A stretch of 10,092 bases of DNA from Planctomycetaceae bacterium (GTDB lineage Bacteria > Planctomycetota > Planctomycetia > Pirellulales > Pirellulaceae): assembly GCA_002685655.1 (NCBI GenBank), contig NYXM01000128.1, positions 1 to 10,092 on the forward strand, written 5' to 3'. Positions within the stretch are counted from its first letter, which is position 1, and each line of letters starts with the position of its first letter. Below, one piece after another: positions 1-10,092 of the stretch. A program made the position numbers and the translations under genes. The notes beneath the pieces were generated by a model, which was given only the letters and a program-made list of their open reading frames with translations, did not search any database and was not told the DNA's origin.

Positions 1-129
1 ACCCTGACCGCAGGCTTGGACGCCCAGAGCGGTTGCCAGGTGCGTCTTGCCGGTGCCGGCGTTGCCAATCAAGATGACCGACTCACGTTGATCGAGATAC
101 CGACCATCGATCAGTGCCAAAAGTACGTG
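1..129 (-). pseudogene. IS21-family helper ATPase (IstB-like), partial remnant
   Basis: Read on the minus strand, this stretch encodes a P-loop with the motif GNAGTGKTHLATALG (Walker A at 43-66), preceded by an Arg/Leu/Ile-rich strand. This is the pattern of IstB, the ATPase that assists the IS21 transposase and is related to DnaC. The frame runs off the left edge of the window, so the C-terminal part is not visible. Going upstream it meets a TGA at 130-132, only about 21 residues before the Walker A motif. IstB proteins normally have 90 or more residues ahead of that motif, so the N-terminal DNA-binding region is missing. A TTG at 118-120 could start a shortened product, but no ribosome binding site precedes it. 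I read it as a truncated insertion-sequence relic. A full IS21 copy would also need istA, which is not seen here. Confidence 0.72.
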
Positions 130-358
130 TCACGATTCGAGGTTACAAAAGAGCCGATTCAGAAGCTCGTGGCCGTTGTTCAGTCACCCAACCAGACCTT
201 CGTAAAAGAATATGGAAAGCAAGACAAGCAACTTTCAAAGAGGCTCGTCGGCTTCAATTGGCCGGAACTATTTCCCGAATGCGTTCGATTGATGCAACGC
301 AAATCAATCCCGCTTCAGTCGAAGCAATGGATTCAGTCCTTTTACAGCTTTCTGGACC

Positions 359-363
359 AGGAG
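359..363 (+). promoter_or_regulatory. Ribosome binding site fixing the start at 370
   Basis: AGGAG lies six bases before the ATG at 370. It is the best Shine-Dalgarno match upstream of this gene. It argues against starts further upstream in the same frame, whose first codons would lie antisense to the IstB remnant. Confidence 0.55.
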
Positions 364-369
364 TTCAGC

Positions 370-807
370 ATGAAGGCGTTTACAACTGAGGTCTGGATTC
401 TAGCGATCAGCACCAAGGAACTTTGGCCAAACGGGATGAGCCATTGGGACATCCACCAGAAATACCGAGTGTGGTGGGATTACAAGGAGCATTCTGTCCG
501 TCCGCTGTACATCGCCTTTCGAGTTGACGGCGTTCTCGATTCGATCTGCCGGGTGAGCCGAGTCGAACATGCTGTTCCGATTATCGACTTGGTGCCAAAA
601 ATGAAGAACATCAAAAAGCCCTGGCCAAAGACGCCTGCGACAATCTGGCATTTTGGGCCTCCGGTGCCTCTTGCAAAACCGCTCCGAACGGGAGCCGGAA
701 TGTACAACCGACGAGTGCGATCTGATCTCGATCTATTGTTAACGTGCGAGACAGTTCAGGAGGTCGAAGAGCAGATGGGCAAGCGGAGGCAAACATCCGA
801 CGATTGA
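370..807 (+). CDS. Hypothetical protein, 145 residues, unrecognised family
   Basis: I do not recognise a named domain. The ATG at 370 is chosen because AGGAG sits six bases upstream. The frame is open further back to position 16, but that part overlaps the antisense IstB remnant and reads as non-protein. The product is soluble, with no signal peptide or membrane segment. It is rich in Trp, Arg and Pro: it has a cluster of aromatic residues near residues 18-40 (WPNGMSHWDIHQKYRVWW) and a basic Pro-rich stretch around residues 78-105 (KNIKKPWPKTPATIWHFGPP). The acidic helix at the C-terminus (ETVQEVEEQMGKRR) could be a short amphipathic helix. The even mix of motif-like aromatic and Pro clusters suggests a real conserved protein rather than a chance frame. 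It sits between an insertion-sequence relic and a pRiA4b-type gene, so it is probably accessory. It is followed by a GC-rich hairpin. Confidence 0.6.
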   Translation: MKAFTTEVWILAISTKELWPNGMSHWDIHQKYRVWWDYKEHSVRPLYIAFRVDGVLDSICRVSRVEHAVPIIDLVPKMKNIKKPWPKTPATIWHFGPPVPLAKPLRTGAGMYNRRVRSDLDLLLTCETVQEVEEQMGKRRQTSDD

Positions 808-832
808 GGCAAATATAGATGGACTAGGAAAA

Positions 833-853
833 GCCCCGCCCTGCGGGCGGGGC
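833..853. terminator. GC-rich hairpin, possible terminator
   Basis: A perfect 9-bp inverted repeat (GCCCCGCCC, loop TGC, GGGCGGGGC) lies 26 bases after the stop at 807 and 22 bases before the ATG at 876. On the plus strand no T-run follows it. On the minus strand the stem is followed by TTTTCC, a weak U-tract, so as an intrinsic terminator it would work better in the minus direction, where no gene is seen. It may be a leftover of an earlier arrangement, or it may act in the leader of the next gene. Confidence 0.45.
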
Positions 854-875
854 CTGATACAAACGGATTCCCAAC

Positions 876-1856
876 ATGACCTGGAAAAAAAGAATATCCC
901 CCGGCGAAAAAGTCCCCCTGAAGCTCACGCCGACCGAGACGAAGGCGATCCTCGAAGACTTGATGTGCCTTGACGGGCAGTACGAGCAAGCCATCCAGGA
1001 AACGCCGTCTGGCAAGACAGTGATGATGACACTCGATGACCTGGAAGACTTCGCAGGCTATGTCGCCGCCGAAGCCAATCACACGGAAGACAAGAAGCTT
1101 GGCAGGAAGCTCGATAAAGTTTTCGACAAGTGCCAACGTCTGCTCGACACGTACACCGACGAGCCGGATGATGCGATCACCGCCGAGCAACGCCTGGTCG
1201 CTGTGCGGAAAAAGGTGGACGACATCCTCGAAGAAATCCAACTTGAAGATTTCGGCAACGAGCGGCCCAAGCAACGGCGGCGACCGGCTAGCAAATCCGA
1301 CTTACTGATTCAAATGAAAGTCACTCTTCTTGAAACCACTCCTGCAATTTGGCGAAGGATTCAAATTAAAGACTGTACGCTTGGCGATCTTCATGAGCAC
1401 ATCCAAACAGCGATGGGTTGGCAGAACTGCCACATGCATAATTTTGTCATCGATGGTGAAATGTATGGCACGCCGATGGAAGACGGTTTTGGCTTCGGTG
1501 ATGAAACAAAGGATGAATCAGGAATCAGACTAAGTGAATGTCTTCCAAAAAACGGGAAACGATTCCGTTTCAGATATATCTACGACTTTGGCGACGATTG
1601 GCAGCACGAGATTCTTTTCGAAGGTTATCCGCCATTGGAGAATGCGAAGAAGTACCCGCTCTGCGTGGAAGGCCAGCGGGCTTGTCCACCGGAAGACTGT
1701 GGTGGTCCCTGGGGCTATGCTGAATACCTTAATGCCCTTGCCGATCCCAACCATGAGCAGCACGACGACTTCATGGAGTGGAGCGGGAAATTCGACGCTG
1801 AAGAGTTTTCGGTGGAGCAGACGACGAGGGAGATGAGGAAGGGATTGCCGGGTTGA
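876..1856 (+). CDS. pRiA4b ORF-3-like (IS1096 TnpR-like) protein
   Basis: The C-terminal part, about residues 142-320, matches the plasmid pRiA4b ORF-3 family (PF07929). It opens with an Ile/Leu strand and TTPAIWRRIQI, continues through HEHIQTAMGWQNCHMHNF, and carries the hallmark YDFGDDWQHE at residues 236-245. It then has the Cys-containing stretch PLCVEGQRACPPEDCGGPWG, which may bind metal, and ends in an acidic region. The function of this family is not established. Members occur on plasmids and beside insertion sequences, and also as scattered chromosomal genes. The first roughly 140 residues form a separate, charged, helix-rich domain that ends in a basic linker (RPKQRRRPASKS). I cannot name it. 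The ATG at 876 is the first start in frame, but no good ribosome binding site precedes it and a hairpin lies just upstream. The gene converges with the minus-strand GIY-YIG gene, with 14 bases between the two stop codons and no terminator visible between them. Confidence 0.88.
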   Translation: MTWKKRISPGEKVPLKLTPTETKAILEDLMCLDGQYEQAIQETPSGKTVMMTLDDLEDFAGYVAAEANHTEDKKLGRKLDKVFDKCQRLLDTYTDEPDDAITAEQRLVAVRKKVDDILEEIQLEDFGNERPKQRRRPASKSDLLIQMKVTLLETTPAIWRRIQIKDCTLGDLHEHIQTAMGWQNCHMHNFVIDGEMYGTPMEDGFGFGDETKDESGIRLSECLPKNGKRFRFRYIYDFGDDWQHEILFEGYPPLENAKKYPLCVEGQRACPPEDCGGPWGYAEYLNALADPNHEQHDDFMEWSGKFDAEEFSVEQTTREMRKGLPG

Positions 1857-1870
1857 ATTTCATCGAACAT

Positions 1871-2287
1871 CTACTTTCGATTACAGACCGGCGTCCTCTC
1901 CCATTTCAAGATATATTCCCAAATCAGTTTTCTTTCGACAAACCGAATGAAATGCGGCTGAAGTTCATCAGGCAATCCGTCTACAGGAAAGGCGGCGACG
2001 TACAGTGAATGTCCTTCATCGCCAAATTCCTCTCGGTAAGTCCAGCCGCCGCTGTGACCGTCCTTCCCAAGGAAGGCAGATCGGTTGAATTGATTCCAGC
2101 GGGTTGAGAGTGTTTGGCTGCACGTTTCACCGAAGTAGATGATCTCCTCCGTGAGAGGACATGCCATTCCGGTCGGCCTGCTTTCAAATCGGGCGAGAAT
2201 GTAGACGCCCGGCTTCGATGCACCCTCTATATGCTTTCGTTCGGCCCACGGCGTCCATGCGGTAAAAGCAATGTCGGGGACGTTCAC
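1871..2287 (-). CDS. Stand-alone GIY-YIG-type domain protein
   Basis: A 138-residue protein resembling a compact GIY-YIG nuclease domain. Going through it: GVY at residues 27-29 stands for GIY, and YFG at 51-53 (in EEIIYFGET) stands for YIG. R63 in LSTRW sits where the catalytic Arg is expected, and E118 in VERKLIWEYI fits the metal-binding Glu on the following helix. This order and spacing fit the fold, but the matches are degenerate and nuclease activity is not assured. There is no extra DNA-binding domain, signal peptide or membrane segment. I chose the GTG at 2287 because AGGAAGGA lies six bases upstream. A TTG at 2320 in frame would add 11 basic residues but has a poorer site. The gene follows the small Cys-rich gene on the same strand and is probably co-transcribed with it. 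Stand-alone GIY-YIG proteins can be mobile nucleases, repair enzymes or defence components; nothing here decides between these. Confidence 0.68.
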   Translation of the reverse strand: MNVPDIAFTAWTPWAERKHIEGASKPGVYILARFESRPTGMACPLTEEIIYFGETCSQTLSTRWNQFNRSAFLGKDGHSGGWTYREEFGDEGHSLYVAAFPVDGLPDELQPHFIRFVERKLIWEYILKWERTPVCNRK

Positions 2288-2293
2288 AGTCGA

Positions 2294-2301
2294 TCCTTCC
2301 T
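2294..2301 (-). promoter_or_regulatory. Strong ribosome binding site for the GTG start at 2287
   Basis: On the minus strand AGGAAGGA stands six bases before the GTG at 2287-2285. This is the strongest Shine-Dalgarno sequence in the left half of the window, and it is the reason for choosing GTG over the upstream TTG at 2320. Confidence 0.6.
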
Positions 2302-2323
2302 GGCCTTTGCGGCGGGGCAAGTC

Positions 2324-2527
2324 CTACTTGTTCCAAGAGCGTCTAAGCTCTTCCCTGTACTCTTCTCGATTCATCAGGTGGATACGCCAGCAACCTTTGC
2401 AAACTGGATCGTCGCAATCGTCAAGTGTTGATTGGCTCTCGTGAATGGTTCGGTCGCAAATCCGGCAAGTGAGAGGTTCTCCAAAAACCTCCCAACATAA
2501 TCTTTCGCATTCAAACAATTTCTTCAT
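2324..2527 (-). CDS. Small Cys-rich protein, putative zinc ribbon
   Basis: A 67-residue protein with two CxxC pairs: C21-x-x-C24 in LTCRICDRT and C43-x-x-C46 in VCKGCW, 18 residues apart. This spacing suits a zinc ribbon or treble-clef knuckle. The C-terminus is a charged helix (NREEYREELRRSW). No catalytic motif is seen, so it may be a protein- or nucleic-acid-binding adaptor. The ATG at 2527 is preceded by GGAGG at 2531-2535. The frame is open 10 codons further upstream, but that extension has no better site. It ends about 36 bases before the GIY-YIG gene's GTG, so the two are probably expressed together, and the pair may act together. I do not recognise the specific family. Confidence 0.6.
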   Translation of the reverse strand: MKKLFECERLCWEVFGEPLTCRICDRTIHESQSTLDDCDDPVCKGCWRIHLMNREEYREELRRSWNK

Positions 2528-2540
2528 ATTCCTCCAAGGT

Positions 2541-2672
2541 TTACGCAGCGGCCCCAAAGATCACTGCTAATTGTGTCTCGATATACTCGTGGTTTCTTCG
2601 TAGCCAGTCGTCAGGCGGTCTGAATAGCTCAATTGGGAAGGACAAGAGCCGTGGCGAAGACCAGAAGATGAC
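2541..2672 (-). pseudogene. C-terminal remnant of an upstream minus-strand gene
   Basis: Translating the minus strand gives 43 residues that end at a TAA (2543-2541), including PIELFRPPDDWLRRNHEYIE, a protein-like charged helix. The stop lies five bases before the GGAGG of the Cys-rich gene, as expected of a preceding cistron. Going upstream the frame is closed by a TAA at 2675-2673, and beyond that the opposite strand is clearly coding. No ATG or GTG start is available. I infer the 3' end of a gene whose 5' part was lost at a junction near 2672-2682. The family is unrecognised, and a chance open frame is possible. Confidence 0.4.
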
Positions 2673-2759
2673 TTACGGCAATTCAAACGGCAGATTGTCT
2701 TCCTGGGTGAAATCCCACAGCAACACGAATGCAAAGATCCCAAGCACCCGTTCGTTGTC

Positions 2760-4232
2760 TTGCTCGAGCCATTGCAGCCTGGTGGGATTGGTGAAGCGGT
2801 CTTGGCTGGGATCGTTATCGCGCAAGTTGAAGTCATTCGCGAGATCGACTTGTATGCCGAAGTCGTCCAAGGAAATACGACATCGCTGCGAACTTCACCT
2901 CATGGCCGCTCCCGGATTCTTTGGAAGGAACCTGGGCTCGGGCTCAAATGGTCTGTCGTCCGACTGAGTGATCGTCCGCGATTCGCCGTCTTCGAATTAC
3001 CTTCCCGCCAATGGCAAACCGGTGATAGCGGGGCTGATCCACCGGAACCAGACGGCTGGGCCAAGATGCCGGACTGCAAACCGGTCTTCTACTTCGCCGA
3101 CGAGTTCACCTATCGGGCCGACAACGATGAGGATTTGGAAACCGTCTGGCATCAGGTCGGCTATCCACCGAAAGAACGCAGCGACGTGATCGCGTTGCAT
3201 TCCAGCACAGGCCTACTCCCGTCGAAGTTCGGGGAGAAGGACTGGGTCTGGTGTTTCTGGAACGAATACGAGGGTCGCTGGCAGGTCCTGGCCGAGTATG
3301 AAGATCACTGGCGGTTCCAGCTGTTGGAACCGCTGCGCCCCTGTGGAACCGCACTCGCACAATTGGTTCTGTACGACGGAACGTACTGTCCGGTCGCCTT
3401 GACGTTTTCGGTTGTCGATTCGATCGGCATATTCAAGCCGGAAGAGACGTCCAGTGGAAGCTCCGGCGGACCGACGCCGATTCCGGCTGGAACTTATGGA
3501 TTCGCAAAACATTTCGCCGACAGCGACAAATGGGAAGTCTACGCTCTCGGTGAAGGTTGCTGTCCGAAGTCCAGCAGCAGTAGTAGCGGGTCCCCTTCGT
3601 CGCAGTCAACCTCGCCAAGCAGTGAGCCACCTTCGGTCAGCAGCGAGCCGTCATCAGTTCCCAGTAGTACGCCATCTTCCGCTCCCAGCAGCCAACCGTC
3701 AGAGGTTTCACCATCCGAACCACCATCGTCACAACCATCGGACGAACCGTCATCACAGCCATCTGAGTCGCCGCCGTCTGAGTCACCGAAATCAAAGAAG
3801 CCAGCGTCCTCGCAACAGTCTGACAAGAGCACCGCGATCGTGCCCGCCAGTTGGTCGCCCACCGGCTACGCCGCGCTATTCATTGCCGAAATGCCAGAGG
3901 TCCGATTCGATGATGTGATGACAGCCACCGTTGTGGAAGACGAGACACTCTTGCCAATCGATCCGAAGTTCATGGAAGTGTGCGAGCCAGGCAGCGTGCA
4001 GGTGTGTGGCTGCGTGCCGGACTTGCCCGTCCCGGTCGGAGCCATTGTAGAGAACGGTGCCGTCCACGTTCGCTTGGGTGTCCGAGATGGAGATCATCCG
4101 ATCTCACTGACGATCCGGCTCACAGGCATTCGCAAAGGTTTTAGCTCGCAGCGGTTCCCGGATCGTACGGAGCAGCAATTCATCGCCAATGAAGAATTCA
4201 TTCGCAGCGCCTATCCGGGGGCGACCAAATGA
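2760..4232 (+). CDS. Modular protein with Ser/Pro linker, 5' end probably truncated
   Basis: Three parts can be seen. Residues 1-240 hold two beta-rich segments: one around LLEPLQPGGIGEAVLAG to ILWKEPGLGLKWSVVRL, and one around PCGTALAQLVLYDGTYCPVA to YGFAKHFADSDKWEVYAL. Residues 271-357 (3570-3830) are a Ser/Pro linker with repeated SSQPS units, preceded by a CC pair. Residues 358-490 form a C-terminal domain (SWSPTGYAALFIAEMPEVRF, then VCEPGSVQVCGC, then FPDRTEQQFIANEEFI). From memory, similar modules occur in planctomycete proteins, but I cannot name a characterised family. The start is doubtful. The TTG at 2760 has no ribosome binding site, yet the same frame encodes plausible homologous sequence upstream (FKRQIVFLGEIP, from 2682) and is open to a TAG at 2625 with no ATG, GTG or TTG. 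The next ATG is at 3066. The stop overlaps the next gene's start (ATGA). It has no signal peptide. It is either a truncated pseudogene or is rescued by an internal start. Confidence 0.72.
   Translation: MLEPLQPGGIGEAVLAGIVIAQVEVIREIDLYAEVVQGNTTSLRTSPHGRSRILWKEPGLGLKWSVVRLSDRPRFAVFELPSRQWQTGDSGADPPEPDGWAKMPDCKPVFYFADEFTYRADNDEDLETVWHQVGYPPKERSDVIALHSSTGLLPSKFGEKDWVWCFWNEYEGRWQVLAEYEDHWRFQLLEPLRPCGTALAQLVLYDGTYCPVALTFSVVDSIGIFKPEETSSGSSGGPTPIPAGTYGFAKHFADSDKWEVYALGEGCCPKSSSSSSGSPSSQSTSPSSEPPSVSSEPSSVPSSTPSSAPSSQPSEVSPSEPPSSQPSDEPSSQPSESPPSESPKSKKPASSQQSDKSTAIVPASWSPTGYAALFIAEMPEVRFDDVMTATVVEDETLLPIDPKFMEVCEPGSVQVCGCVPDLPVPVGAIVENGAVHVRLGVRDGDHPISLTIRLTGIRKGFSSQRFPDRTEQQFIANEEFIRSAYPGATK
3570..3830 (+). 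repeat. Ser/Pro low-complexity linker
   Basis: An 87-residue run made almost entirely of Ser, Pro, Glu and Gln. It opens with six Ser in a row and includes three near-copies of SSQPS followed by an acidic residue. It separates the N-terminal modules from the C-terminal domain. Its composition is like the early part of the next gene's product, which points to a shared modification or shared origin. Confidence 0.8.
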
Positions 4233-6574
4233 GTTCCTCATTAGCCAGCTATGGATCGAGTAAGTCATTCTCAAGTGTTAGCGAATCGTCTCGTTCGTCA
4301 TCACCCTCCAGTTCTCCATCATCATCCGACTCTTCTCCCTCTCACTCCAGCGAAAGCCTCTGGTCCAGCAAGAGCAGCCCATCGTCAAGTGAGGAGTCAG
4401 GGAGCGATACATCGTCTTCACGCCTCAGCCGATCATCCGGCAGTGACAGCACAGCATCCGATTCGTCTCGTTCATCGGACGCCAAGTCTTCCGGATCGTC
4501 CGACAGCCGACCAAGTGCGTCTTCCAAGAGCCCATCAAGCAGATCGTCAGCTAGCAAATCCTCGGATTCACGGTCAACTGACCTGTCGTCGGCGTCGTCA
4601 GGCAGTGGCTCAGTGGATTCCCGATCGTCCGCGAGTTCCTCTGAGGGCAAGTCGAGCGTTCTGAGTTCTGGACAATCGTCGGCGTCGGACAGTGGCAAGT
4701 CGTCACATGCTTCGTCAAAGAGTCCGTCGTCAGGAAGTAAGACATCGGCAGGAAGCAGCGGTCCGTCGTCGCAATCCGATTCGGGGTCATCCCCGAGCTT
4801 AGCATCATCCGAGCAATCATCTGGCCACTCGTCCGAAACGAGCAGCGACGCATCGGGCAGCGAGCGTTCGTCTGGTTCACTTCCCAGCGCATCGAGTGAT
4901 GCAAGTAAAACATCATCCGACTCACGAAGCGGAACAAGCAGCCAGAGTATCGCCAGCGACAGTGGGTCTCCCGTTTCCCAGAGCGGTGCTTCTGCCAGCT
5001 CTCACGATTCACCAGCATCGTCCGACCAGGCAAGCAGCAGGCGATCGGGAACTTCCAGCGAGGGCCTCTCCAGTAAAGCCGCATCGAGTCATGTTTCTGA
5101 TAGTACAGGATCAAGCACGCATGTCCCGTCGAGTGACAGCCAACCATCGACGTCGCCGGGATCAGGAAGCTCCGGCGATTCGACCAGTCCGCCACCATCA
5201 TCAACCCCATCAGACGTTCAAAGTAGCGATGGCCAGTCTGGTAGTTCGCAAGCGTCCAGTGGCGCTCCGTCGAGTGTGGCCAACGAATCGAGTGAATCCA
5301 AAGATTCACCTACGTCATCGACGGCACCGAGCAGCACGGCGTCACAGATGTCTGGCGACGCGACGTCCAGCGGGGCGACTTCTAGCACAACTCGGCCGAG
5401 TTCTAATTCCACGGGTTCCAAGAGCGACACACCACAATCGAGTGACAGCCCGACATCCGGCTCACCAACCGTAGGCAGCTCCGGTTCGCCACAGTCAGGC
5501 AGTCAGCATTCTACTGATTCCGACAGATCCACCAGCCCGGCAGCCAGCTCACAACCGTCTCCACCTGCAAGCAGCGACCCCGAATCGACAACTAGCGCAT
5601 CTGACCAACCAAGTTCCAACGTCGACACTTCTTCGACGGATGGTCCATCCAGTGTGACCGATCCATCGGCGTCTCCTGATTCCACACAATCGACCGCGTC
5701 GACGAGCCCAACGCCATCTCCAACGGGATCATCTACACCGTCCGAGACTACTCCCAGCGGCGCCAGTTCCGACACCCAACCATCGCAACCAAGCGGTTCG
5801 GCCGTGCCAAGTGATGCGAGCACGTCGCCCGAATCAACCACATCGGATGGATCGACCACTTCGGAACAACCATCACCGATAGATAGCACTGTTCCATCGA
5901 CAACATCAAGCCAACCACCTGCATCTACGCCAAGCACACCCGGTCCCGGATCGAGTGACGCGCTACCACCGAGCACCGAACCGTCAGGGGATTCGACCGT
6001 GCCTGGCAGCAGTGGTGGCTCTGCGACACCTCCGAGCGAGACGTCGGAAACACCGTCACCCGACCCTAGTGAAACGAGTGATGTGCCTCCAACCAGTGAC
6101 TCACATCAGCCGAGTACTCCTAGCACACCGGGGCCTGGTTCAAGCGACACCAATCCGATCCCCGGCAGTAGCGAGACTGGTCGGGATTCGAACGAACCAT
6201 CGAGCGAGGCAGCGTCGCCGACGCCTCCACCGGATCCTAGTGGAACAAGCGAACTGCCACCGACGAGCGATTCTCCACAACCAAGTACACCTGGTCCAAC
6301 TTCAAGTGACGGCGCACCACCGACTCCGCCAACGTCAGGGAGTAGCGATACAGATCCCGGTTCGACAACGCCGCCGACCAGTGAAACACCCTCTGGCGGA
6401 CCGCCTCCGCCCGATCCGAGTGGAACGAGCACGCCCGATCCAACAATAAGCGATCCATCCGAACCGTCCTATTCCGAGATGCCCGATCCAACGATCAGTG
6501 ACGCGTCCGAACCGTCTTACTCCGAAATGCCTGATCCAACCATCAGCGATGCATCCGAATCGCCAGCTCCGTGA
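4229..6574 (+). CDS. 781-residue Ser/Thr/Pro-rich disordered protein
   Basis: The whole product is low complexity. By direct count Ser is 31 of the first 50 residues and 12 of the last 50. Pro goes from 3 to 11 and Thr from 0 to 5 over the same windows, so there is a gradient from a Ser/Ala/Asp-rich N-terminus to a Pro/Thr/Ser-rich C-terminus. There is no Cys, one Trp, and almost no hydrophobic run, so no signal peptide, membrane segment or folded domain is visible. It ends in 16-residue tandem repeats. All six Ser codons are used. Likely roles (inference) are an extended surface, matrix or fibre-like protein and an acceptor of O-linked glycans, since five putative sugar-modifying genes follow in the same operon. 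The ATG overlaps the previous stop (ATGA), so translation is probably coupled. The frame stays open for 2.3 kb while the two other plus frames give only Arg/His-rich shadows, which supports this frame. Confidence 0.85.
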   Translation: MSSSLASYGSSKSFSSVSESSRSSSPSSSPSSSDSSPSHSSESLWSSKSSPSSSEESGSDTSSSRLSRSSGSDSTASDSSRSSDAKSSGSSDSRPSASSKSPSSRSSASKSSDSRSTDLSSASSGSGSVDSRSSASSSEGKSSVLSSGQSSASDSGKSSHASSKSPSSGSKTSAGSSGPSSQSDSGSSPSLASSEQSSGHSSETSSDASGSERSSGSLPSASSDASKTSSDSRSGTSSQSIASDSGSPVSQSGASASSHDSPASSDQASSRRSGTSSEGLSSKAASSHVSDSTGSSTHVPSSDSQPSTSPGSGSSGDSTSPPPSSTPSDVQSSDGQSGSSQASSGAPSSVANESSESKDSPTSSTAPSSTASQMSGDATSSGATSSTTRPSSNSTGSKSDTPQSSDSPTSGSPTVGSSGSPQSGSQHSTDSDRSTSPAASSQPSPPASSDPESTTSASDQPSSNVDTSSTDGPSSVTDPSASPDSTQSTASTSPTPSPTGSSTPSETTPSGASSDTQPSQPSGSAVPSDASTSPESTTSDGSTTSEQPSPIDSTVPSTTSSQPPASTPSTPGPGSSDALPPSTEPSGDSTVPGSSGGSATPPSETSETPSPDPSETSDVPPTSDSHQPSTPSTPGPGSSDTNPIPGSSETGRDSNEPSSEAASPTPPPDPSGTSELPPTSDSPQPSTPGPTSSDGAPPTPPTSGSSDTDPGSTTPPTSETPSGGPPPPDPSGTSTPDPTISDPSEPSYSEMPDPTISDASEPSYSEMPDPTISDASESPAP
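6059..6148 (+). repeat. Degenerate Pro/Ser repeat, copy 1
   Basis: This encodes 30 residues, beginning PDPSETSDVPPTSDSHQPST and ending STPGPGSSD. It is repeated with changes at 6230-6310. The closing STPGPGSSD also occurs at about 5930-5959, so this half of the protein appears to have grown by internal duplication. Confidence 0.6.
6230..6310 (+). repeat. Degenerate Pro/Ser repeat, copy 2
   Basis: This encodes 27 residues, beginning PDPSGTSELPPTSDSPQPST and ending PGPTSSD. It aligns with copy 1 with a three-residue deletion and scattered substitutions. The shared PDPSGTS opening appears once more just before the terminal tandem repeats. Confidence 0.6.
6434..6571 (+). repeat. C-terminal 16-residue tandem repeats, 2.9 copies
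   Basis: Three head-to-tail units of 48 bases start at 6434, 6482 and 6530. They read PDPTISDPSEPSYSEM, PDPTISDASEPSYSEM and PDPTISDASESPAP, the last being cut by the stop codon. Synonymous positions differ between units (for example ACA, ACG and ACC for the Thr) while the protein is nearly unchanged. They contain the only Tyr residues of the protein apart from Tyr8. Confidence 0.9.
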
Positions 6575-6576
6575 CA

Positions 6577-7515
6577 ATGAAGAAACTGATTCTCAAATCG
6601 AATCTCTGCCCCGGCGACATCCTGACGATGACTGCCGCTGTGGAGTCGTTGCACCTGGCGTATCCCGGCGAGTACGAAACCGACGTTCGCACACCAGCGT
6701 CCGAGATCTGGCAACACAATCCTCGCATCACGAAGATCGCTGATGATGCTCCTGATGTCGAAACGATTGACCTGAAGTATCCAGCCATCAATCGCAGCAA
6801 CCAAGAACACATTCCGTTTCTGGCTGGCTACACGGAAGACCTGGGTCGCAAACTTGGCCGACCACTGACGCTCAAGGTGAACCGTCCGTGCCTGTATCTC
6901 AGCGACGATGAGAAGAACTGGGTCGACCAGGTCCGCCATCACGTGACTGACGGTCGGAAGATTCCGTTCTGGCTTGTCAACGCGGGCATCAAAAGCGACT
7001 ACACGGCCAAAGCTTGGGCGGTTGAGTCTTTCCAAGAGGTCGTCGATCGGACGCGAGGCCGTATCCAATGGGTGCAGGTCGGCGCAAAGGAACATGATCA
7101 CCCGAAGCTCAGCGGCACGATCAACCTCGTCGGCCAGACCGACCATCGGCAACTGATTCGGCTGGCTTGGCACTGCCAAGGTGGCCTCGGGCCGGTGACG
7201 TATTTGCAGCATCTCTGTGCGGCATGGGAGAAGCCCTACATCTGCTTACTTGGTGGTCGAGAACCGGCGACGTGGGTGAGCTACCCCTTGCAGCATACGT
7301 TCCACACGATCGGCACCTTGCCCTGCTGCAAAACGTCTGCCTGTTGGAAGTCGCGGATCGTCACCGCCGGAGACGACTCGAACAAAGACAAACAAGAGAA
7401 TCTTTGCCAATGGCCCGTCTTCGGACTGCAGCGTCCTGTCGCTCGCTGCATGGCGGCCATTCGCCCCGATGAAATTATCACCTTGTTGGAGAGAAACCTA
7501 TGCCACCCGTCGTGA
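6577..7515 (+). CDS. GT9-like (ADP-heptose:LPS heptosyltransferase-like) glycosyltransferase
   Basis: A 312-residue GT-B-type transferase. The N-terminus (LILKSNLCPGDILTMTAAVE) has the short strand plus PGD loop typical of family 9 heptosyltransferases. A second half begins near WLVNAGIKSDYTAKAW. The likely donor-binding region is GGREPATW at residues 226-233. The expected reaction is transfer of a heptose or related sugar from a nucleotide donor to an acceptor. The operon also encodes an HldE-type nucleotidyltransferase, which fits. Unusually, the last 65 residues contain five Cys (C250, C251, C256, C277, C291) around LPCCKTSACWKSR. This is not part of classical WaaC or WaaF and may bind metal. 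The start is the ATG at 6577; a GTG at 6571 overlapping the previous stop is possible and would add two residues. No clear ribosome binding site is present, so translation is probably coupled to the Ser-rich gene. It overlaps the next gene by 16 bases. Confidence 0.82.
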   Translation: MKKLILKSNLCPGDILTMTAAVESLHLAYPGEYETDVRTPASEIWQHNPRITKIADDAPDVETIDLKYPAINRSNQEHIPFLAGYTEDLGRKLGRPLTLKVNRPCLYLSDDEKNWVDQVRHHVTDGRKIPFWLVNAGIKSDYTAKAWAVESFQEVVDRTRGRIQWVQVGAKEHDHPKLSGTINLVGQTDHRQLIRLAWHCQGGLGPVTYLQHLCAAWEKPYICLLGGREPATWVSYPLQHTFHTIGTLPCCKTSACWKSRIVTAGDDSNKDKQENLCQWPVFGLQRPVARCMAAIRPDEIITLLERNLCHPS

Positions 7516-8231
7516 AGACTGTGATCGGCGATATCGAGATGTGGGTCCGGCAAGGACTGCAAGCTGCCTGGGACATCGGCACCAGCCAAGCTGTGATCAC
7601 CGGTGATGAGTATTCCCTCGAGCCGTTTCTTCATTCACCCATGCGTTTGAAAGTCCGCACGGTCGTCGACGTCGGAGCCAACATTGGTGCGTTTACACTC
7701 GCCGCGAGGCGTACGTTTCCCAACGCACGCGTGATTGCCGTCGAGCCAGATCCGGACAACGCGGAGTTGTTGCGACACAACTGCGGTCATGACGCTAACG
7801 TTACCGTCTGCCAAACGGCCGTGCTGAATGACGATTTTCCCGACACTGTCCATTTATGTCGACACACCTTGAACAGTGGCGGCAACTATATCGGCCAATT
7901 GTTTCAGCAGAAGCAGCCACCGTTTATCGACTCGGAACCGATCGCTGTCCCCTGCCGATCGATTCACGAGTTGCTCACCGATCTTGGTGTGAACGACATC
8001 GATCTGCTCAAAGTCGATGCCGAGGGAGCTGAGGTAGACATCTTCTCCTGTCTGGCCGCTCACAACTGGCTGCCAAAGACCTGTTGGATTCGGTTCGAGT
8101 GGCACGGTCGTGATTCGATCCCGCACCTACGGCGCCTTCTCTCTCCTACCCACCAAGTATCCATCGAAGAAGACAGTCTTTGGAACGCACTGGGAATCGC
8201 TCATCGAAAGGAAACTCCATGCCCGAGTTAA
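7500..8231 (+). CDS. FkbM-family SAM-dependent methyltransferase
   Basis: 243 residues with the class I methyltransferase fold of the FkbM group (PF05050). Motif I is VVDVGANIGAF at residues 55-65. An acidic residue that would contact the SAM ribose follows in AVEPDPDN (E82), and DLLKVDAEGAE starts at residue 168, as is usual for this family. The family methylates hydroxyl groups on small molecules and sugars, so a sugar O-methylation role in glycan finishing is likely here, inferred from the flanking glycosyltransferases. The start is the ATG at 7500, with GGAGAG six bases upstream (7488-7493) inside the end of the GT9 gene. It overlaps the next gene by 13 bases. No membrane segment is present, so it should act in the cytoplasm. 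Confidence 0.87.
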   Translation: MPPVVKTVIGDIEMWVRQGLQAAWDIGTSQAVITGDEYSLEPFLHSPMRLKVRTVVDVGANIGAFTLAARRTFPNARVIAVEPDPDNAELLRHNCGHDANVTVCQTAVLNDDFPDTVHLCRHTLNSGGNYIGQLFQQKQPPFIDSEPIAVPCRSIHELLTDLGVNDIDLLKVDAEGAEVDIFSCLAAHNWLPKTCWIRFEWHGRDSIPHLRRLLSPTHQVSIEEDSLWNALGIAHRKETPCPS

Positions 8232-9388
8232 ACATCGACTCCGCACCCGTGCTCGTTGATGCTGCCATCCCTCAACTTGCTGAAACTCCCGAAGAACCGA
8301 AAGAAGGACGTGGCATCGTCATTGCCGCCGGTGGCGCTAAGTTTCAAATTAATGCCTGGGTCTGCATTCGGATGTTGCGAGATTTGGGATGCCAGCTACC
8401 AATCCAGTGCTGGTATCTGGGTGACGCTGAACGTAACCAAGCTTGGGAACAGATCGTTGCTTCGTACGGCGTCGAGTGTATCGACGCCTATGAAGTTCGT
8501 GAAAAGCATCCGCACGAACGGCTGCATGGCTGGGAATTGAAGCCGTACGCCATCCAACATTCACCGTTTGCGGAAGTGTTGTTTCTGGATGCTGACAATG
8601 TTCCAGTGCGCGACCCGACGTTCCTGTTCGATACGCCCGAGTTCGAATCCAACGGCGCCATATTCTGGCCAGACTTTGGGCGATTGGCGGCGGACCGGAC
8701 GGCCTGGCGAGTCTTTGGCAACATCCCGTATCGCGACGAACCGGAGTTTGAAAGCGGTCAGATCGTGGTTGATAAACGCCGTTGCTGGAAGGCGTTTGAG
8801 CTCTGCCACTGGTACATGCAGAACAGTAACAACTTCTTCTACTTTCATGTGCATGGTGATAAGGAAGTCTTCCACATGGCGTGGCGGAAGCTAGAGCAAC
8901 CGTATGCCATGACGGAGCGAGGCATCGACGCCTTGGACGGGGTCATGTGCCAGCACGACTTTGACGGCGAACGGCTATTCCAACACCGCAACATGCGGAA
9001 ATGGAACTTCTATCACAATCCGAAGACGCCCGGCTTCCTGTACGAGGATCAGTGCATTGAACTGGTCAACGAGTTGAAACACATCTGGTCACCCGCGTCA
9101 CAACAGTTGGCCACGGCGGAAGACTTGTCTGCCTTGTCGCGTCTCGACAGCAAGATCTTTGAGTACCACCGCGTCGGATACGACCATCGTCGCTTGAAAC
9201 TCCGTCGCGATGGCACGTTCGACGAAGGTGTTGCCAGTTGCGAACACTACTGGACGATCCGCGACGATCAACTGTTGGTCGCTGGCGAAGAAGCCGAACT
9301 GACGATGACTTTGACTCCGGGCAAGCATGGAATATGGGAGGGACAATGGTTGAACCACGAGAAGATGCCCGTGCTGCTGGTCCCGTGA
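8219..9388 (+). CDS. DxD glycosyltransferase, mannosyltransferase/GT8-like, with C-terminal extra domain
   Basis: 389 residues. The N-terminal 300 look like a GT-A transferase of the putative alpha-mannosyltransferase (PF11051) or glycogenin/GT8 kind. A first strand (GIVIAAGGAKFQINAWVCIR) is followed by LPIQCWYLGD, then KPYAIQHSPFAEVLFLDADN with the metal- and nucleotide-binding D124-A-D126-N127, and GAIFWPDFGR. The donor sugar cannot be told from sequence. From about residue 317 there is an extra region of about 70 residues (RLKLRRDGTFDEGVASCEHYW to [17 protein letters not shown]), probably beta-rich; it may help bind the acceptor (inference). The start is the ATG at 8219, with AAAGGA six bases upstream. 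Starting at the TTG at 8180 would put 39 bases inside the previous gene without support. It has no signal peptide, so it is cytoplasmic. It overlaps the following gene by 43 bases. Confidence 0.82.
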   Translation: MPELNIDSAPVLVDAAIPQLAETPEEPKEGRGIVIAAGGAKFQINAWVCIRMLRDLGCQLPIQCWYLGDAERNQAWEQIVASYGVECIDAYEVREKHPHERLHGWELKPYAIQHSPFAEVLFLDADNVPVRDPTFLFDTPEFESNGAIFWPDFGRLAADRTAWRVFGNIPYRDEPEFESGQIVVDKRRCWKAFELCHWYMQNSNNFFYFHVHGDKEVFHMAWRKLEQPYAMTERGIDALDGVMCQHDFDGERLFQHRNMRKWNFYHNPKTPGFLYEDQCIELVNELKHIWSPASQQLATAEDLSALSRLDSKIFEYHRVGYDHRRLKLRRDGTFDEGVASCEHYWTIRDDQLLVAGEEAELTMTLTPGKHGIWEGQWLNHEKMPVLLVP

Positions 9389-9897
9389 CGGCGTACATCG
9401 TCGCTGGTGTTAACTCTAGCGGCAATCGTCTGCTGGCTTCGATTCTCGTCCGCTCTGGGTGTGCGGGTGAGGGAAGCACGAACCAGCCGATGAGGATCGA
9501 AGAAATACCGCCGCCTGATCTTTCGATCGTGATCATCAAGCACGGCATGCTGACTGGTTGGATTCGCCGCTTTCGCGAGCTGGGTTACCAAAGAATTGTC
9601 GTGATCATTCCCATTCGTGAGCCGATTGCTAATTGCTTATCCATCGTGGCACGCGGTCACCTGAGTGACTTCGAGGACGCGTATCACCACCGCATCGTGG
9701 CCATCACCCGCAACCTAGTTGAAGCATTAGCTCAGCGAGTTGAGTTGGAGTTGATCACCTACGAAGGGCTGACGGAACCGTTTCTAAAACAGTGGCTGCC
9801 ACGGATCGGTCTCCCGTATGTCCCCGGCAGCCTATCTCTCCCCGGCCAACACGCATCGAACGAGATCTGCAACCAGAACGCAAAGCATTACGCATGA
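9346..9897 (+). CDS. Small P-loop sulfotransferase-like protein
   Basis: 183 residues. A P-loop-like GVNSSGNR at residues 21-28 after a beta strand resembles the 5'-phosphosulfate-binding loop of sulfotransferases. [11 protein letters not shown] (residues 89-99) carries R91 and S99 eight positions apart, the spacing seen in the PAPS 3'-phosphate-binding motif of that superfamily. A later [11 protein letters not shown] resembles the usual strand before the C-terminal helices. The expected reaction is sulfate transfer from PAPS to a sugar hydroxyl. The protein is short for the family and diverged, so another nucleotide-dependent transfer is possible. The start is the ATG at 9346, preceded by GGAGG four bases upstream (9337-9341). 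Another ATG at 9334 in frame is possible. The frame continues upstream to 9238, but that part overlaps the preceding gene and has an odd Arg/Asp composition. It overlaps the next gene by ATGA. Confidence 0.66.
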
Positions 9898-10092
9898 CCA
9901 CAGTCTTCACCAACGGCGTCTTTGATCTGTTGCATGTTGGCCATGTGCGGTTATTGCAGTTTGCGCGTCAGCAAGGCGATAACCTGATCGTCGCGATCAA
10001 TTCCGACGCCAGCGTGCGCCGAATCAAAGGTCCGAGTCGTCCTATCGTTTCTGCCGATGAACGTGTGGAGATCTTGCAAGCTCTCCGCTGCG
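9894..10092 (+). CDS. HldE C-terminal-type nucleotidyltransferase, 3' truncated by window
   Basis: The 66 visible residues hold the nucleotidyltransferase signature: [17 protein letters not shown], with HVGH at residues 14-17 as the HxGH nucleotide-binding motif, then [19 protein letters not shown] and [13 protein letters not shown]. The [11 protein letters not shown] segment is specific to the HldE/RfaE C-terminal domain, which activates D-glycero-beta-D-manno-heptose 1-phosphate with ATP to give ADP-heptose. It is less like TagD-type glycerol-3-phosphate cytidylyltransferases. No kinase domain precedes it, so it is a stand-alone adenylyltransferase or a relative using another sugar phosphate or CTP. 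It starts at the ATG at 9894, overlapping the previous stop (ATGA). It probably supplies the donor for the GT9 enzyme upstream in the operon. The gene continues beyond the right edge. Confidence 0.85.

What the first reader, a model, noticed from the sequence alone, without database searches (positions are those of the whole stretch)
2760..10092. Self-contained cassette: Ser-rich proteins plus their own sugar-modifying enzymes
Seven genes in one tightly overlapping operon run from two Ser/Thr/Pro-rich proteins to a GT9 enzyme, an FkbM methyltransferase, a second glycosyltransferase, a sulfotransferase-like protein and an HldE-type nucleotidyltransferase. Seen: gene order, overlaps and motifs. 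Inferred: the Ser-rich proteins are the acceptors, and the glycan is methylated and sulfated. I know of no characterised system with this exact set, although Ser-rich adhesin loci in Firmicutes have an analogous layout with unrelated enzymes.
Basis: partly seen in the sequence, partly recalled or inferred. Interest (0 to 1): 0.75.

Follow-up and report, generated by a model that had tools for sequence, protein, structure and literature searches.

The report
Phage fibre module with glycosylation genes
The serine-rich genes look like fibre genes of viruses that infect planctomycete bacteria, followed by sugar-attaching enzymes that the virus may use to decorate its own particle; the copy here is missing its front end.

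Summary
The genes are real, but the cassette is of viral origin, not a free-standing adhesin locus. The first Ser-rich protein (SR1) has a C-terminal domain found at 57 IMG/VR loci and 11 bacterial genome loci, all Planctomycetota. In two related temperate-phage records SR1 comes one gene after the tape measure and is followed by SR2, GT9, the PF11051 enzyme and, in one, HldE. A model of intact SR1 shows capsid-protein-like, disordered Ser-rich and tailspike-like parts, the last weakly supported. Glycosyltransferases follow SR1 (at least 15 of 107 ORFs) but rarely precede it (1 of 143). GT9 folds like heptosyltransferases, including protein-modifying TibC; HldE makes ADP-heptose. Best reading: a phage fibre block whose enzymes glycosylate the fibre; acceptor and sugar are inferred. 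Against: stalkless loci also have glycosyltransferases, sulfation is unconfirmed, the full enzyme set is rare, and the window's SR1 lacks about 66 residues, so this copy may be a remnant or a chimera.

The parts
2628..4232 (+). SR1 (5'-truncated): fibre-like protein; N-terminal folded part incomplete, Ser/Pro-rich stalk, conserved C-terminal domain (about 3820-4229)
   Evidence: frame open from 2628, homology from 2646, first start codon TTG 2760; model of the intact L021 orthologue
4229..6574 (+). SR2: 781-aa Ser/Pro/Thr-rich protein with N-terminal YGSSKSFSSVSES
   Evidence: ATGA overlap with SR1
6577..7515 (+). GT9-type (heptosyltransferase-fold) glycosyltransferase; listed from GTG 6571
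7500..8231 (+). FkbM-family methyltransferase
8219..9388 (+). PF11051 'Mannosyltransferase putative' (second glycosyltransferase); listed from TTG 8180
   Evidence: 76-82% identical in L010, L021, L026
9346..9897 (+). small protein with SSGNR (P-loop-like) and IREPIAN..S motifs; sulfotransferase assignment not confirmed
9894..10092 (+). [quoted passage not shown]

Best explanation
This is the distal end of a tail/fibre gene block of a temperate tailed phage of Planctomycetota. SR1 is a fibre protein: an N-terminal domain resembling capsid-associated virion proteins, a long disordered Ser/Pro stalk, and a conserved C-terminal domain resembling tailspike and fibre ends. SR2 is a second Ser-rich virion protein. 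The enzymes encoded next to them glycosylate these Ser-rich stretches in the infected cell before assembly: HldE supplies ADP-heptose, GT9 adds heptose to Ser, and the PF11051 enzyme, the FkbM methyltransferase and the small unassigned protein extend or cap the glycan, giving a mucin-like decorated fibre. Shown: gene content and order, viral context, predicted folds. Inferred: virion location, acceptor, sugar, order of steps, and benefit (stiff or protected fibres, altered adsorption). In this contig SR1 lacks its start, so this copy is a truncated remnant unless the contig is chimeric.
Confidence: 0.55

Rival explanations
1. The enzymes are phage lysogenic-conversion or superinfection-exclusion genes that change the host cell surface (gtr-type seroconversion, recalled), and only happen to lie after the fibre gene.
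For: GT9 folds like WaaC/WaaF, which build lipopolysaccharide cores; the phage is temperate (serine integrase); glycosyltransferases also follow stalkless fibres; other planctomycete genomes carry the same GT9 family.
Against: The frames overlap by 4-43 bp or lie 2 bp apart from SR1 to HldE, which suggests co-expression with the late genes; position after the fibre gene recurs across divergent viruses; GT9 lies near Ser-rich ORFs again in L089, L102 and L105 and near a moderately Ser-rich one in L092, without the SR1 domain.
Confidence: 0.22
2. In this contig the cassette is a dead prophage remnant, or the contig is a chimeric assembly; it is not a working operon here. (This concerns the copy, not the module, so it does not exclude the best explanation.)
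For: SR1 has lost its first ~66 residues and start; upstream genes are unrelated to the L021 tail genes. L010, in a Gemmatales MAG, shows another truncation (homology starts at residue 175 of 624), joined to an antisense sigma-70 gene, with FkbM and the HldE kinase split across frames.
Against: The frames after SR1 are open in the window; the two truncation points differ, as for independent events; no read data to test the junction.
Confidence: 0.45
3. A bacterial surface glycoprotein locus: Ser-rich adhesins of the planctomycete with dedicated enzymes, possibly a phage cassette that the host has taken over.
For: Window and L010 hold the cassette with no match to the L021 tail genes nearby; genome locus L105 has GT9, a PF11051-like ORF and a 67% Ser protein whose N-terminus looks Tat-like by eye.
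Against: Relatives of SR1 lie in phage tail blocks; SR1 is truncated in both phage-poor copies; I saw no secretion or anchor feature in intact SR1 (by eye, no dedicated tool).
Confidence: 0.1
4. The glycosyltransferases modify phage DNA against restriction.
For: Reported for other phage glycosyltransferases (PMC12619734, passages).
Against: Among the G002/G001 ORFs I annotated there is a ParB-DNA methyltransferase but no base-hypermodification gene (not all ORFs were annotated); GT9, GT25 and FkbM are glycan or protein enzyme families (recalled); position in the fibre block.
Confidence: 0.04

Closest known systems
Virion glycosylation in mycobacteriophages (Freeman et al. 2023, seen only as cited in PMC12619734)
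   Same: Glycans on virion proteins of a tailed phage; PMC12619734 says they were seen on capsid and tail tube subunits. That the glycosyltransferases are phage-encoded is recalled.
   Different: Here the candidates are Ser-rich fibre stalks, the set includes an ADP-heptose synthesis gene and an FkbM methyltransferase, and nothing has been shown biochemically.
Bacterial autotransporter heptosyltransferases TibC/AAH (PMC4358343, passages)
   Same: GT-B heptosyltransferase fold, a conserved Asp near the start of the catalytic domain, four conserved Cys near the C-terminus, acceptor gene nearby.
   Different: No N-terminal beta-barrel domain; Cys spacing differs (252/258/279/293 against 339/342/358/370); the proposed partner is a phage fibre, not an autotransporter; 12-14% identity in the structure alignments.
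Ser-rich repeat adhesin loci of Firmicutes (recalled)
   Same: Ser-rich protein followed by glycosyltransferase genes.
   Different: No GT4-type or Sec family among the ten window proteins scanned; phage context.

Membership tests
Glycosyltransferase family 9 | Pfam PF01075 score over cut-off | tested here: inconclusive
   21.8 against 22 bits in the window; L010 orthologue 24.1
Glycosyltransferase family 9 | GT-B heptosyltransferase fold | tested here: met
Bacterial autotransporter heptosyltransferase (BAHT) | N-terminal beta-barrel domain (TibC residues 1-97) | tested here: not met
   window protein starts at the catalytic fold; model residue 1 aligns with TibC 91
Bacterial autotransporter heptosyltransferase (BAHT) | four-Cys iron-finger | tested here: inconclusive
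   four invariant Cys in 13 of 13 aligned sequences; spacing differs; low model confidence there
Bacterial autotransporter heptosyltransferase (BAHT) | autotransporter partner gene (often, per PMC4358343) | tested here: not met
   neighbours SR1/SR2 have no Pfam match and SR1 has fibre-like features
HldE adenylyltransferase domain | NCBIfam TIGR02199 over cut-off (181.5 bits) | tested here: inconclusive
   best family match, 95.4 bits over the 66 aa present; L010 159.8 bits over the whole domain
PAPS-dependent sulfotransferase | family profile match | tested here: not met
   no match in the window protein; Stf0 in 2 of 30 at best E 0.045; hhalign 1%
Phage tail/fibre gene block | lies just after the tape measure | tested here: met
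   one gene after a PHROGs tape measure in L021, L026 (95.6% identical) and L012; not testable in the window, which lacks that region
Phage tail/fibre gene block | protein present in virions | not testable with these tools
   needs proteomics
Glycosylated virion system | covalent sugar on a virion protein | not testable with these tools
   needs mass spectrometry
Firmicutes Ser-rich repeat adhesin locus | GtfA/GtfB (GT4) and accessory Sec (recalled) | tested here: not met
   no GT4 or Sec family among the ten window proteins scanned

The most novel reading that the evidence does not exclude
Planctomycete phages build mucin-like fibres: intrinsically disordered Ser/Pro/Thr stalks that the phage itself O-heptosylates with a TibC-like enzyme and ADP-heptose from its own HldE. 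The SR2 motif YGS-KS-SSVSES acts as the entry tag for modification or virion attachment, and exchangeable glycosyltransferase sets let related phages vary the fibre coat.
Probability: 0.3. Interest if true: 0.82.

Novelty: new variant of a known kind. Interest (0 to 1): 0.6.

Why it matters
Phage fibres are usually described as rigid folded trimers (recalled). Fibres with long disordered Ser-rich stalks and linked phage-encoded glycosylation genes would be a different way to build and protect an adhesion organelle, and would give virion glycosylation a defined enzyme set and acceptor to test. I found no paper on such a module in my searches, which cover open-licence papers only and, for most hits, listings only.

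Tried and rejected
Rejected: a stand-alone host adhesin cassette (viral context). Not established: sulfotransferase identity of the protein at 9346-9897. BAHT membership fails on the beta-barrel. tblastn of GT9 against annotated phages: no match. GT9 alone against PDB sequences: nothing relevant; its profile found WaaF at 9.3e-5 and did not list TibC. SR1 model against PDB: no Foldseek E at or below 0.001. Tape measure family PF20155 was not found in the L010 genome, but it rang in only 3 of the 10 SR1-bearing genomes, one of them over cut-off. Rfam and tRNA scans of the window: nothing. I had expected glycosyltransferases to be absent after stalkless fibres; they are present. Census, Ser-type loci: 107 downstream ORFs scanned (114 called; 9 dropped as doubtful calls, 7 minus-strand and 2 plus-strand; 2 better-framed L021 ORFs added); upstream 114 of 143 at first, the other 29 scanned later with no glycosyltransferase. 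26 and 30 loci contribute to the first two sets. The Pfam listings show 25 families (of 70 downstream, 26 upstream), so hidden families were not counted. ORFs over 900 aa or over 25% Ser were left out of the census.

Full report
WHAT IS THERE. The window has one run of + strand frames from 2.6 kb to its end. SR1/SR2 overlap by 4 bp, GT9 follows SR2 by 2 bp (ATG 6577), GT9/FkbM overlap by 16 bp, FkbM/PF11051 by 13 bp (ATG 8219), PF11051/next by 43 bp (ATG 9346), and HldE starts in a 4-bp overlap at 9894. The first frame is a truncated gene: P0002 and P0004 (595 and 573 aa) align from residue 67, the L021 orthologue from 69, at window 2646; a stop lies at 2625-2627; before it lie a PRiA4_ORF3 gene and two unassigned genes.

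WHERE IT COMES FROM. SR1 has 154 homologues at E<=1e-3 among the 7,996 candidates scored; 104 of the 120 listed share the C-terminal domain. A profile of that domain found 11 genome loci, all with Planctomycetota names, and 57 distinct viral loci. These 68 loci fall into 46 clusters at 90% domain identity. L010 (Gemmatales MAG contig), L021 and L026 (viral records of 65.5 and 54.9 kb) carry the closest cassettes: against the window GT9 is 81-82% and PF11051 76-82% identical in all three; HldE is 80% identical to L021 and absent from the L026 piece, which ends before it. FkbM and the 9346 protein are matched only in L010 among these; L021/L026 have a different methyltransferase and a GT8-Methyltransf_24 protein. 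G002 is a temperate tailed phage by PHROGs. L089 reads: tape-measure-sized ORF, 282 aa, 312-aa protein with 42 Ser in 60 residues, GT9, a GT9-like plus FkbM protein, 9346-type protein. L092 (98.7 kb record) reads: 362-aa ORF with 24 Ser in 60, another ORF, GT9, PF11051, FkbM. Neither matches the SR1 domain at 1e-3.

SURVEY. 27 of 46 SR1-type proteins have a Ser-rich stalk (at least 14 Ser in 40 residues); 17 have a Ser-rich ORF starting within 300 bp, all inside the 27. GT25 proteins lie 0.2-1.5 kb after SR1 in 9 loci and 7 kb after in a tenth. In L029, L036 and L037 the GT25 protein also matches Sulfotransfer_3 in its second half, over the cut-off only in L029. Downstream: GT25 9, GT9 4, GT2 3, Sulfotransfer_3 3, PF11051 2 and others among 107 ORFs; upstream: one GT2-type among 143, with tape-measure families. 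In 14 loci without Ser stalks, 60 downstream ORFs include GT4 (5), GT2 (4), GT9 (2) and methyltransferases. So glycosyltransferases follow this fibre gene generally, and the Ser-rich stalk is one variant. The full window set is rare: PF11051-enzyme homologues occur in 4 of 15 SR1-bearing genomes or records, one weak, and direct scans of viral contigs found 3 GT9 and 3 PF11051 loci.

MECHANISM. Proposed: HldE makes ADP-heptose; GT9 transfers heptose to Ser of the stalks; the PF11051 enzyme, FkbM and the 9346 protein elaborate the glycan; decorated fibres assemble. Only family assignments and order are shown. The kinase half of HldE is not in the window, which ends; in L010 it follows the adenylyltransferase in split frames, the reverse of the domain order in the bifunctional NCBIfam model.

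In 392 genomes of the phylum (five best candidates scored in each), 6 have this GT9 family at E<=1e-20, L010's own included. Of the six other loci, in five genomes, L102 and L105 have strongly Ser-rich ORFs (51 and 59 Ser in 60 residues) and L100, L101, L103, L104 do not (at most 26) in stretches of 9-18 kb. None of the six matches the SR1 domain.

SR2 MOTIF. [YFWL]G[SA][SAE]KS occurs near the N-terminus (first 60-70 residues) of 16 of 20 Ser-rich ORFs next to SR1, the window included; residue shuffles gave a mean of 0.019 and at most 1. A first, stricter pattern matched 5 of 22. The pattern was fitted to the sequences and the genes may share ancestry, so it marks a family and proves no function.

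VERDICT. A real variant of phage fibre locus with linked glycosylation genes, not described in the papers I could search; the window holds a truncated example.

Noticed in passing
window 1-2620: Upstream genes are unrelated to the cassette: a 268-aa unassigned ORF, a PRiA4_ORF3 protein (PF07929, 1.3e-61) and a reverse-strand 149-aa ORF that looked GIY-YIG-like by eye (no Pfam hit).
   Followed up: partly
window 4229-4280; L010, L011, L012, L016, L017, L021, L023-L026, L032, L034, L037, L050, L077: Conserved N-terminal motif of SR2, [YFWL]G[SA][SAE]KS, often continued as SSVSES; in L040 a similar motif is at the C-terminus.
   Followed up: yes
L029:10598-11926, L036:17449-18933, L037:11147-12448: GT25 glycosyltransferase fused to a sulfotransferase-like P-loop domain, after the fibre gene (7 kb away in L036); L016 looks the same by alignment.
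   Followed up: partly
L105:1409-7363: Planctomycetota genome contig with GT9, a 901-aa ORF matching the PF11051 enzyme (1.5e-57) and a 67% Ser protein with a Tat-like N-terminus: a possible host counterpart.
   Followed up: partly
L010:8960-9100: SR1 truncated at a different residue (175 of 624) and joined to an antisense sigma-70 family gene.
   Followed up: partly
L010:15716-17224: HldE adenylyltransferase comes before the kinase, with the kinase split over two frames.
   Followed up: no
L092:15896-16864: A second GT9-family ORF (7.9e-38 to the window enzyme) about 4 kb after the GT9-PF11051-FkbM run.
   Followed up: no
L057, L060 (records of 183 and 235 kb): Large viral records with the same C-terminal domain on stalkless proteins of 929 and 1098 aa followed by long GT9-containing ORFs.
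   Followed up: no
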